Below are positions 25,650 through 28,160 of a stretch of 64,000 bases of DNA, piece after piece. How positions within the stretch are numbered: position 1 is the first letter of the stretch; each line of letters opens with the position of its first letter. Source of the stretch: Psychroflexus tropicus DSM 15496 (GTDB taxonomy: Bacteria; Bacteroidota; Bacteroidia; Flavobacteriales; Flavobacteriaceae). The notes under the pieces were generated by a model that worked only from the letters and a program-made list of their open reading frames with translations, was not told where the DNA came from and made no database searches. The stretch lies in contig NZ_KB905343.1 of the NCBI RefSeq assembly GCF_000378765.1, positions 190,914 to 254,913 on the forward strand, written 5' to 3'. Both the position numbers and the translations under genes were made by a program.

Positions 25650-25685
25650 AAAAAGTGGATTGGAGTATTTCAATCCACTTTTTTT
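25650..25685. terminator. Bidirectional intrinsic terminator (fumC / PCIF1-like gene)
   Basis: AAAAAGTGGATTG pairs with CAATCCACTTTTT around GAGTATTT; it overlaps the last bases of the opposing gene. Confidence 0.85.
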
Positions 25686-26664
25686 ATTTGGAATAGCCGT
25701 CAAGAATGGCTTTTGCAGAAAATCCCTCGAATTGACCATAGCGGTGAATACAAACATTTACAGGTAAAGGTTTTAGTACACCTTCCAAACCTTCATAATA
25801 ATGAGTATCTTTTTTAAGTGTTACAGTTTCATCAGGTTGATTCGCTGGAGTATGGCTCTCAGGAATAATTAACAGAAAACTCAACTCTTTATAGGTTTCA
25901 AGCCAAGTTTCGAGAATATGGTCTACTTTAGTCATAATCTCAGTCGTAAATGGAGGGTCTAGGCACCAGTGCCCTGGATTCTCAGGCATTTCTAGGTTGA
26001 AAAAACTACCTCCGCTGCCAAAGATTTTATCGGTATCTTTAAATAAACTGTAGAATTGAGCTTGGGGTTTCCCTAAAACTCTCGCGTTAAACGGTGAAGC
26101 AAAGCCTTCATTTCGAATCCCCCAGTCATAAAACATATCGTAAACCCTTTGAGGAGGTCCTATGTGCCTGGTTTCTGCATAGATAGATGCATATCGCAAT
26201 GCAGATCTTAAAATCGCATTAAAGGCTTCAGTCTTATCTGATTTTTTTTGAACAAAATGAAAAGCTTTGTCTATATATTGGTTGCGATGTAGTTTAAATT
26301 CTCCAATGCCAAAAGAAGTGGCGTCTATTTGACCCTCATCAGGAATGTCAATCGTTCTGTAATAAGACTTGGCAGCCTCTTCTATCATCTTTAGAATTTC
26401 TTGCGCTTCAGAGTCACTCAACTCTATAGAAGAATACGTAAATCCATTTTTAACTGCCTCTAAATCGACCTTAAGAAATAAATCCTGACCGTTGCACTTT
26501 TCACTAGGTTGCAAGTTCATCAATGTATTTTCTAAACCAGCCTTGATTTGAGATGGATTCCCTTTAGCGGATAATTTCTGGGATACATTTTTCAAAATCT
26601 CTTGACTTAATTTCCAATTTTGATATTCCTGTTTGACTTCTGAATTTATTTTTATGATATTCAT
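25684..26664 (-). CDS. PCIF1-like N6-adenosine methyltransferase (bacterial member)
   Basis: This 326-residue protein resembles the catalytic region of PCIF1, the eukaryotic enzyme that writes N6-methyl on the 2'-O-methyladenosine next to the mRNA cap. From memory of PCIF1, matching landmarks occur in the same order: FASPFN (188-193; FASPLN in PCIF1), a DTDKIFGSGGSF stretch (210-221; DTDGYFGSRG), the catalytic DPPF (236-239; NPPF), FLLIIPES (263-270; FIVFIPEW) and THYYEG (287-292; MHYKA). DPPF fits the (D/N/S)PP(Y/F/W) motif of amino-methyltransferases. The eukaryotic WW domain is absent; residues 1-120 are a helical region without a match I know. It is third in an operon with prfB and an ArsC/Spx-like gene. 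The substrate (RNA, DNA or nucleotide) is unknown. Confidence 0.78.
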   Translation of the reverse strand: MNIIKINSEVKQEYQNWKLSQEILKNVSQKLSAKGNPSQIKAGLENTLMNLQPSEKCNGQDLFLKVDLEAVKNGFTYSSIELSDSEAQEILKMIEEAAKSYYRTIDIPDEGQIDATSFGIGEFKLHRNQYIDKAFHFVQKKSDKTEAFNAILRSALRYASIYAETRHIGPPQRVYDMFYDWGIRNEGFASPFNARVLGKPQAQFYSLFKDTDKIFGSGGSFFNLEMPENPGHWCLDPPFTTEIMTKVDHILETWLETYKELSFLLIIPESHTPANQPDETVTLKKDTHYYEGLEGVLKPLPVNVCIHRYGQFEGFSAKAILDGYSK

Positions 26665-26714: not shown

Positions 26715-27056
26715 CTAAAGTATGTTTTTAATCTTTTCAGGAGGTCGACCTATTACCGCTTTATCATTGTTAATAACAATAGGTCTTTCAATCAGCTTTG
26801 GAAATTGATGAAGGGCCTCAATGATCTCTTCATCAGATAGCGATTTACCTTTGAATTGATCTTTCCAAACTTTCTCCTGAGTTCTCACCAGCTCTGCTGG
26901 TGATATGTCGAGCTTAGTTATTAAAGATTGAAGCTCGTTTTTTGTTGGTATATCATCAAGGTATTTTTTGATTTCAAAATCCTGACCTGACTCCTCTAAA
27001 ATAGCCAAACCTTCTCTGGATTTTTTGCAACGTGGATTGTGGTATATTTCAATCAT
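26715..27056 (-). CDS. ArsC/Spx-family thioredoxin-fold protein
   Basis: The 113-residue product begins MIEIYHNPRCKKSREGLAIL, which has the family's single catalytic cysteine in PRCKKSR, and ends with the conserved basic block LIERPIVINNDKAVIGRPPE. This is the arsenate reductase (glutaredoxin-type) or YffB/Spx fold. Family members reduce arsenate via glutathione or glutaredoxin, or have regulatory roles. No arsenic genes are nearby, so an arsenate role is uncertain. Its ATG overlaps the prfB stop by 4 nt (ATGA), indicating translational coupling. Confidence 0.85.
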   Translation of the reverse strand: MIEIYHNPRCKKSREGLAILEESGQDFEIKKYLDDIPTKNELQSLITKLDISPAELVRTQEKVWKDQFKGKSLSDEEIIEALHQFPKLIERPIVINNDKAVIGRPPEKIKNIL

Positions 27057-28160
27057 AAACTATCGGTTTCTTTTTTCTGTCCGCTACTCATTAAATAAGT
27101 TTTTAAGAAGGAGTCGATATGCCCATTCATCACATCATCTACATTACCGCTTTCATGGCCTGTTCTCACATCCTTTACTAGTTTGTAAGGATGCATTACG
27201 TAATTTCTGATTTGCGATCCCCATTCTATACTTTTCTTTTCCGATTCAATTTCAGACCGGGCAGCTTGTTGTTTTTGGAGTTCGATCTCATACAGCTGAG
27301 ATTTTAGCATTTTCATCGCCTTTTCCCTGTTTTCCAATTGGGATCTGGTTTCCGAATTATGGATGACGATACCACTAGGATGGTGGGTTAAAATGGCTTT
27401 GGTTTCTACTTTGTTTACATTTTGGCCGCCGGCGCCTCCAGACCTTGCAAAGTCCCAACTAATTTCAGACGGGTTGATGTCTATTTCAATCGTATCGTCG
27501 ACCAAAGGATAAACGTATACGGAAGCAAAAGAAGTATGTCGTTTGGCATTGCTGTCAAATGGAGAGATTCTCACCAAGCGATGCACCCCATTTTCTCCTT
27601 TGAGCCAGCCAAAGGCATAATCCCCTTCAATTTCTAAAGTGACTGTTTTAATACCTGCGACATCTCCAGATTGGTGGTTGAGTTCTCTTATTTTAAAGCC
27701 TTTGCGTTCTGCCCACATTACGTACATTCTCATCAGCATTTCTGCCCAGTCACAGCTTTCGGTACCACCTGCACCAGCGGTGATTTGAAGAATGGCCGTT
27801 AAAGGATCACTTTCCTCAGACAGCATATTTTTAAATTCGAGATCTTCAATGAGGTCAAGAGCTTCAGTGTATTTGGTCTGCAACTCTTCTTCGGAGACAT
27901 CGCCCTCTTCGTAAAATTCATAGAGAACGCTTAGATCTTCTACTCGTTGTTTGGCTTCGTCGAAGCTTTTGATCCATTGCTTCTCATTGTTAATAGTCTG
28001 CATTAGTTTTTGGGCTTCTTGCGGCTTATCCCAAAAATCTGGTGCAAAGGTTTTTTCTTCTTCGTTGGAAACTTTTACGCGCTTAGCATCTAAGTCAAAG
28101 ATACTGGTTTAAGGAAGTGATGCGTTCGTTGATGGTCTTTATTGAATCTGAATTGATCAT
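27053..28160 (-). CDS. prfB: Peptide chain release factor 2, with programmed +1 frameshift
   Basis: RF2 terminates translation at UGA and UAA. The downstream frame holds the peptidyl-hydrolysis motif GGAGGQNVNK and TAGAGGTESCDWAEMLMRMY. Read alone it would start at an internal ATG (28003) and lack about 50 residues. Upstream, ATG at 28160 opens a 21-codon frame ending in CTT TGA C (TGA opposite 28095-28097). Skipping one base after CTT continues as DLDAKRVKVSNEEEKTF into the main frame and gives 368 residues, the normal RF2 length. The CTTTGAC slip site is identical to the E. coli one, preceded by TAT, so RF2 autoregulates by reading its own UGA. No AGGGGG-like element precedes the slip site. 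Confidence 0.95.
28095..28100 (-). promoter_or_regulatory. prfB +1 frameshift site CTTTGA
   Basis: The minus strand reads TATCTTTGAC at the junction. When RF2 is scarce the ribosome pauses at the UGA and slips forward one base from CUU to UUU. Codon 22 is the in-frame stop. Confidence 0.92.

What the first reader, a model, noticed from the sequence alone, without database searches (positions are those of the whole stretch)
25684..26664. A bacterial relative of the eukaryotic mRNA-cap methyltransferase PCIF1
The protein matches PCIF1 at a series of landmarks in the same order: FASPFN, DTDKIFGSGGSF, DPPF, FLLIIPES, THYYEG. PCIF1 was described as the enzyme making m6Am at the mRNA cap; bacteria have no such cap, so this member must have another substrate (rRNA, tRNA, nucleotide or DNA). 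DPPF in place of NPPF still fits adenine-N6 transfer. Residues 1-120 replace the WW domain. It shares an operon with prfB and an ArsC/Spx-like protein, so translation or tRNA/rRNA is a plausible target. The alignment to PCIF1 is from memory and was not computed.
Basis: partly seen in the sequence, partly recalled or inferred. Interest (0 to 1): 0.78.

Follow-up and report, generated by a model that had tools for sequence, protein, structure and literature searches.

The report
Bacterial cousin of cap methyltransferase PCIF1
Some aquatic bacteria carry a trimmed relative of PCIF1, the animal enzyme that marks the first letter of capped messenger RNA, although bacteria have no such cap, so what it methylates there is an open and testable question.

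Summary
The minus-strand ORF (326 aa) matches Pfam PF12237, the CAPAM/PCIF1 methyltransferase domain misnamed "PCIF1_WW", at 73 bits (cut-off 31.1), and solved PCIF1 by sequence (E about 1e-5; profile 3e-9). An AlphaFold model (pLDDT 92) matches six CAPAM entries at Z 21.4-23.5 over 293-304 of 326 residues; the next fold is at Z 9.9.

Correction: the N-terminal half does not replace the WW domain. It aligns with CAPAM's helical domain; the WW part is simply absent.

The genus is Psychroflexus: 14 of 27 genomes searched carry the gene. Elsewhere it is very rare (Salibacter, three uncultured bins). It is under purifying selection. The order prfB-arsC-gene-fumC holds in 12 of 12 loci of one Psychroflexus clade and in 0 of 5 others, so the operon says little about substrate. 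Giant viruses encode relatives of similar shape.

Best reading: a horizontally acquired adenine-N6 methyltransferase, probably acting on RNA. The substrate is untested. Against an m7G-cap-like role: the glutamate inferred to contact the m7G ribose is kept in 2 of 17, and the N-terminal domain is not basic. A 2022 paper states that prokaryotes have no PCIF1 homologues; this contradicts it.

The parts
25684..26664 (-). PCIF1-like (PF12237) methyltransferase gene, 326 aa plus stop
26176..26664 (-). residues 1-163: N-terminal helical region, counterpart of CAPAM's helical domain
   Evidence: whole model aligned from residue 6-8 to CAPAM 195-200 onward; alone: six CAPAM entries first, 146-149 of 163 residues, but Z only 5.7-6.3, tied with unrelated folds, and CAPAM not in Foldseek's first 50
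25687..26175 (-). residues 164-326: Rossmann methyltransferase domain
   Evidence: PF12237 match at residues 142-272; model
26152..26172 (-). TRHIGPP (residues 165-171), invariant in 17 of 17; its last P aligns with human P494, the end of PCIF1's active-site loop
   Evidence: loop limits from PMC10544176
26086..26103 (-). FASPFN (residues 188-193), FASPLN in human and zebrafish PCIF1; invariant in 17 of 17
26008..26022 (-). FGSGG (residues 215-219), FGSRG in PCIF1
25948..25959 (-). DPPF (residues 236-239), catalytic motif, NPPF in PCIF1; DPPF in 17 of 17 bacterial sequences
25855..25878 (-). FLLIIPES (residues 263-270), FIVFIPEW in human PCIF1
25789..25803 (-). HYYEG (residues 288-292), near the place of PCIF1's substrate-binding loop; not checked against PCIF1 by sequence
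26715..27056 (-). arsC-like gene, 113 aa, upstream in the same direction
27053..28003 (-). prfB, main frame (the gene starts at 28160 with the usual frameshift)
25650..25683 (.). terminator-like hairpin between the gene and convergent fumC
   Evidence: 1 found, 2.2 expected in shuffles: position, not count, is the argument

Best explanation
It is a SAM-dependent adenine-N6 methyltransferase of the CAPAM (PF12237) family, reduced to a helical domain plus the methyltransferase domain, without the RNA-polymerase-II-binding WW domain. A few bacteria acquired it by horizontal transfer, most likely from the eukaryote or giant-virus side. It binds SAM in the Rossmann domain, holds an adenine at the DPPF motif beside the invariant TRHIGPP and FASPFN loops, and moves a methyl group to N6. 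Shown: family, fold, motif conservation, purifying selection, sporadic distribution. Inferred: catalysis, N6 as the target atom, direction of transfer. Guess: the substrate is RNA, most likely at or near a phosphorylated 5' adenosine.
For: PF12237 73 bits; PCIF1 the only credible PDB sequence hit; CAPAM Z 21.4-23.5 over 293-304 residues, next fold Z 9.9 over 132 residues; DPPF, TRHIGPP, FASPFNAR invariant in 17 of 17; DPPF known in ZCCHC4; dN/dS of the methyltransferase part 0.038-0.110 in the 7 unsaturated pairs of 8; viral relatives with the same layout, one aligned over 264 residues at E 5e-20; rare outside the genus; several carriers are named strains, not only bins; 10 of the 12 residues conserved as basic lie from R157 on, in the methyltransferase half.
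Against: No activity was tested. The N-terminal region is net negative in 14 of 17, against a long basic RNA groove, though all six neighbouring proteins checked are acidic too. The helical domain is not significant on its own. The m7G-contact glutamate (identified by inference) is kept in 2 of 17. Direction of transfer is unrooted.
Confidence: 0.6

Rival explanations
1. It N6-methylates an internal adenine of rRNA or tRNA, as RlmF, TrmM or ZCCHC4 do: a lineage-specific translation modification.
For: DPPF as in ZCCHC4; operon with prfB in one clade; rRNA adenine methyltransferases (Dim1, KsgA, Erm) are the next structural neighbours, Z 8-9.9.
Against: The prfB link fails in 0 of 5 other loci; no sign that it replaces RlmF or KsgA: only 2 of 27 Psychroflexus genomes have a PF05971 match over the cut-off, with or without the gene, and KsgA is in 26 of 27, the exception being a 52% complete genome; the gene is absent from 13 of 27 genomes of the genus.
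Confidence: 0.25
2. It methylates a small adenine nucleotide (such as NAD, ATP or a dinucleoside polyphosphate) rather than a polymer.
For: Conserved basic residues lie mostly in the methyltransferase half and the N-terminal region is not basic.
Against: PF12237 enzymes with known activity act on RNA ends; acidic surfaces are common among this genome's proteins (six of six neighbours at pI 4.5-6.1).
Confidence: 0.15
3. It is a DNA adenine methyltransferase, for example a defence or anti-restriction enzyme.
For: DPP(Y/F/W) motifs occur in DNA adenine methylases (general knowledge); E. coli Dam is among the structural hits, Z 8.6; sporadic distribution; PCIF1 has some activity on single-stranded DNA (PMC11550742, passage).
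Against: No PADLOC match; no defence gene recognised beside it in the ORF lists read (by eye, not by a defence search of the neighbours); no copies in the phage or plasmid collections.
Confidence: 0.1

Closest known systems
[quoted passage not shown] PDB 6irv-6is0)
   Same: PF12237 domain, fold over helical domain and methyltransferase domain (Z 21.4-23.5), FASP, FGS and PPF landmarks
   Different: No WW domain, 326 instead of 704 aa (length of human PCIF1 from PMC10544176), DPPF for NPPF, the inferred m7G-contact glutamate mostly lost, N-terminal region not basic
PCIF1-like proteins of giant viruses (Pithovirus LCPAC103, Cafeteria roenbergensis virus, Tetraselmis virus 1 and others) and two IMG/VR contigs
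   Same: Mostly short proteins with the same two-domain layout; Foldseek E 6.4e-12 to 3.0e-7 for the first nine; one contig protein aligned over 264 residues, E 5e-20
   Different: NPPF in the two contig proteins read; 28-29% identity; function not tested to my knowledge
Small jumbo-phage adenine methylases near the PCIF1 clade (AMM43637.1)
   Same: Described as closest to the PCIF1 clade (PMC7824862, passage)
   Different: Sequence not held here, so not compared; the window protein has no match in the phage collection
rRNA adenine methyltransferases: Dim1/KsgA/Erm, ZCCHC4
   Same: Rossmann fold; ZCCHC4 has DPPF
   Different: Dim1/KsgA/Erm at Z 9.9 or less over about 130 residues; no Pfam match to their families

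Membership tests
PF12237 CAPAM-like methyltransferase family | PF12237 match over the curated cut-off | tested here: met
   73 bits against 31.1; the 14 carriers in the genus all over the cut-off
PF12237 CAPAM-like methyltransferase family | CAPAM fold of the methyltransferase domain | tested here: met
   predicted model, pLDDT 92.1; Z 21.4-23.5 to six CAPAM entries
PCIF1/CAPAM proper | Helical domain before the methyltransferase domain | tested here: met
   whole-model alignment covers 293-304 of 326 residues; on its own only Z 5.7-6.3 and not in Foldseek's first 50
PCIF1/CAPAM proper | N-terminal WW domain that binds RNA polymerase II | tested here: not met
   Pfam finds PF12237 only; the model begins at CAPAM residue about 195-200
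PCIF1/CAPAM proper | Catalytic NPPF | tested here: not met
   DPPF in 17 of 17; a known variant in ZCCHC4
PCIF1/CAPAM proper | Methyltransferase-domain glutamate that contacts the m7G ribose | tested here: not met
   E in 2 of 17, else T, S, K, P or D; its place is inferred from a review's numbering
PCIF1/CAPAM proper | Arg239 and Arg269 of the helical domain | not testable with these tools
   no residue-level alignment of this region was available
PCIF1/CAPAM proper | m6Am formation on m7GpppAm RNA | not testable with these tools
   needs an enzyme assay
RlmF (PF05971) / KsgA-Dim1 (PF00398) rRNA adenine methyltransferases | Pfam match | tested here: not met
   only PF12237 found at E up to 1

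The most novel reading that the evidence does not exclude
The bacterial PCIF1-like enzyme is a 5'-end writer: it N6-methylates the first adenosine of bacterial transcripts that begin with a triphosphate, NAD or a dinucleoside polyphosphate cap. m6Ap3A has been found on E. coli RNA and methylation protected the tested caps from RppH (PMC7044304, passages); the passages I saw name no enzyme for it. E. coli is among the 14 control genomes (named), none of which has a PF12237 match, so there the mark must have another source, and this would be a dedicated writer in other bacteria.
Probability: 0.17. Interest if true: 0.88.

Novelty: new variant of a known kind. Interest (0 to 1): 0.62.

Why it matters
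[quoted passage not shown] Here are clear members in named bacterial strains, in hosts without an m7G cap. They are a minimal natural version of the enzyme; finding their substrate would show what the helical and methyltransferase domains can do apart from cap and polymerase II. If the substrate is a 5' adenosine, the writer of a bacterial cap mark becomes directly testable.

Tried and rejected
Plasmid and phage copies: none by tblastn in 72,556 plasmid and 50,697 phage records. PADLOC: no match; PHROGs: one match at E 0.27, not significant. Relatives in IMG/VR: none with the window protein or with A1; one contig by a degenerate pattern, the same and a second one by a mixed alignment; two other patterns found nothing. 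These pattern scans miss distant relatives.

Weak PF12237 matches in two other genomes of the family (G1066 and G906, 20.4 and 19.4 bits, under the cut-off) were dropped: one lies in a frame that looks like an M16 peptidase (type from memory), the other in a frame with three stops.

Replacement of RlmF or KsgA: no anticorrelation seen. Direction of transfer: the small tree (7 of 17 bacterial, 2 viral, 2 animal cores) is unrooted, so not used for direction. Mapping of Arg239 and Arg269 was not possible. More bacterial members outside the two motif patterns may exist: that scan needs near-exact motifs, and the profile searches saw samples of one or two phyla.

On print: I saw no description of a bacterial chromosomal member in searches, in an open-access library; only 20 of 908, 25 of 457 and 12 of 29 papers were listed. 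The 2019 PCIF1 papers of two groups are not held. The clade analysis of Iyer and colleagues (2016) is recalled, not looked up, and may mention more.

Full report
Observation. The ORF at 25684-26664 on the minus strand encodes 326 aa. It matches PF12237 at 73 bits, cut-off 31.1. This Pfam entry is called PCIF1_WW, but it is the methyltransferase and not a WW domain; a 2020 paper notes the misannotation (PMC7641849, passage). No NCBIfam model matches at E up to 1. Against the PDB the credible sequence hits are PCIF1/CAPAM of zebrafish and human only: 8.4e-6 and 1.1e-5 for the single protein, 3.2e-9 and 5e-9 for the profile of 17 relatives.

Fold. The AlphaFold model from 17 bacterial sequences has pLDDT 92.1 and pTM 0.89. 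Foldseek's first five PDB hits are all CAPAM, E 8.3e-11 to 8.2e-9; their superpositions are poor (rmsd 16.5-18.7), presumably because CAPAM is larger. VIA-align gives Z 21.4-23.5, rmsd 3.5-3.9, 293-304 residues for the six CAPAM entries, and Z 9.9 over 132 residues for the next entry, a dimethyladenosine transferase. The alignment begins at model residue 6-8 and at CAPAM residue 195-200. So the N-terminal half is the counterpart of CAPAM's helical domain and not a substitute for WW. As a separate test I folded residues 1-163 alone (pLDDT 93.7). Six CAPAM entries come first in VIA, over 146-149 of 163 residues, but at Z 5.7-6.3, which is tied with an unrelated entry at 5.6 over 88 residues, and CAPAM is not among the 50 rows shown by Foldseek. 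The helical-domain assignment thus rests on the whole model and on aligned length.

Active site. DPPF, TRHIGPP and FASPFNAR are invariant in 17 of 17. The last P of TRHIGPP aligns with human P494, the end of the active-site loop F479-P494 given in PMC10544176 (passage). DPPF is compatible with adenine-N6 transfer: ZCCHC4 has it (PMC7927073, passage). A review names Arg239, Arg269 and Glu563 as m7G-ribose contacts (PMC11550742, passage). Human residue 563 is Ala if NPPF is 553-556, so I read Glu563 as zebrafish numbering, the first glutamate after NPPFC; that is an inference. There the 17 bacterial sequences have T in 8, S in 3, K in 2, E in 2, P in 1, D in 1. Twelve residues are K, R or H in at least 15 of 17, and 10 of them lie from R157 on; the N-terminal region is net negative in 14 of 17. 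This speaks against a long basic RNA groove, but the six neighbouring proteins checked are acidic as well (pI 4.5-6.1).

Distribution. PF12237 matches 14 of 27 genomes of the genus, the own one included, and 0 of 33 other genomes of family and order. It matches 3 of 395 in a draw of the phylum, all of the genus; 4 of 299 in a draw of the family, of which 2 are of the genus and 2 are under the cut-off and dropped; 1 of 120, 2 of 119 and 1 of 112 relatives of three other carriers, counting the carriers themselves, the extra one being at the same contig place as a known Psychroflexus; and 1 of 377 in the phylum of the carrier labelled proteobacterium, itself. The draws overlap. A motif scan of the collection of 84,980 species genomes gives 14 loci: 10 named Psychroflexus (8 strains, 2 bins), Salibacter halophilus, and three uncultured bins labelled Bacteroidetes, proteobacterium and Flavobacteriaceae. 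Bins may be misassigned; the strains are firmer.

Context. In 12 of 12 loci of the main Psychroflexus clade the order is prfB, arsC, the gene, then convergent fumC. In the 5 other loci (L023, L025-L028) none of these neighbours is found; L026 has only about 100 bases before the gene, so its upstream side is unknown. Two of these five (L025, L028) are binned in the same genus (G005, G002). Of the 13 genus genomes without the gene I looked at 12: arsC follows prfB directly in 5 and after 617 bases in 1, is not found in 5, and one contig ends there; fumC and the gene are beside it in none. So the gene has a fixed place in one clade and stands elsewhere alone; the operon does not name a substrate. 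A terminator-like hairpin follows the gene.

Selection. NG86 dN/dS in 8 pairs: whole gene 0.057-0.176, methyltransferase part (from residue 128) 0.038-0.110, N-terminal part 0.080-0.380, each for the 7 pairs that are not saturated. The gene is under purifying selection, stronger in the methyltransferase part.

Viral relatives. Of the first nine hits in the viral model library, seven are proteins of giant viruses annotated as PCIF1-like or WW, one has no name, one is from salmon gill poxvirus; E 6.4e-12 to 3.0e-7, TM-score by query length 0.49-0.73, against 0.52-0.54 for CAPAM. Two IMG/VR contigs of 79 and 127 kb encode proteins with PF12237 at 75 bits and NPPF; one aligns with the window protein over 264 residues, E 5e-20. 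That the contigs are giant viruses is my reading of size and neighbours (a long B-family polymerase, a ubiquitin hydrolase). Core identity of the window protein: 35 and 29% to the viral, 37% to both animal proteins, 51-72% to six other bacteria. Transfer into bacteria from the eukaryote or virus side is the simpler reading of rare and scattered bacterial carriers, but it is not rooted.

Mechanism. Shown: family, fold, motif conservation, constraint. Inferred: SAM-dependent methyl transfer to adenine N6. Guess: the substrate. E. coli RNA carries m6Ap3A and other methylated dinucleoside polyphosphate caps, and methylation protected the tested caps from RppH (PMC7044304, passages). A 5'-adenosine writer is therefore a thinkable role for a CAPAM-type enzyme in bacteria. 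E. coli, one of the 14 control genomes (named), has no PF12237 match, so that mark has another source there.

Known or new. The family is known. A 2022 paper says prokaryotes lack it (PMC8868631, passages), while a jumbo-phage paper points to small phage enzymes near the PCIF1 clade (PMC7824862, passage). In the searches named under Tried and rejected I saw no description of a bacterial chromosomal member. I file the protein in the PF12237 methyltransferase family and not as PCIF1 proper, because WW and NPPF were tested and not met. It may still work like PCIF1.

Noticed in passing
window 28160-28094, minus strand: prfB starts at 28160 and has the usual release-factor-2 frameshift site (CTT TGA C at 28100-28094), so the listed ORF 27053-28003 is only its main part.
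   Followed up: yes
L074/L075 (IMGVR 3300042923_001787) and L076 (IMGVR 3300042934_001233): Two giant-virus-like contigs with PCIF1-like proteins of about 300-347 aa and NPPF: possible viral cap-adenosine methyltransferases.
   Followed up: partly
L025, L026, L027, L028: Carriers known only from metagenome bins; two come from the same sample (SRR4030052) and L027 is high in G+C by its look. Possible transfers or binning errors.
   Followed up: no
L060-L071: In Psychroflexus without the gene, fumC is not beside prfB-arsC in any of the 12 stretches seen, so gene and fumC share one clade's gene order.
   Followed up: partly
27 Psychroflexus genomes: The genus seems to lack a clear RlmF (2 of 27 barely over the PF05971 cut-off), whereas KsgA is in 26 of 27.
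   Followed up: no
window 25650-25683: A near-perfect hairpin with T and A runs at both ends could end transcription from both sides, for the gene and for fumC.
   Followed up: no
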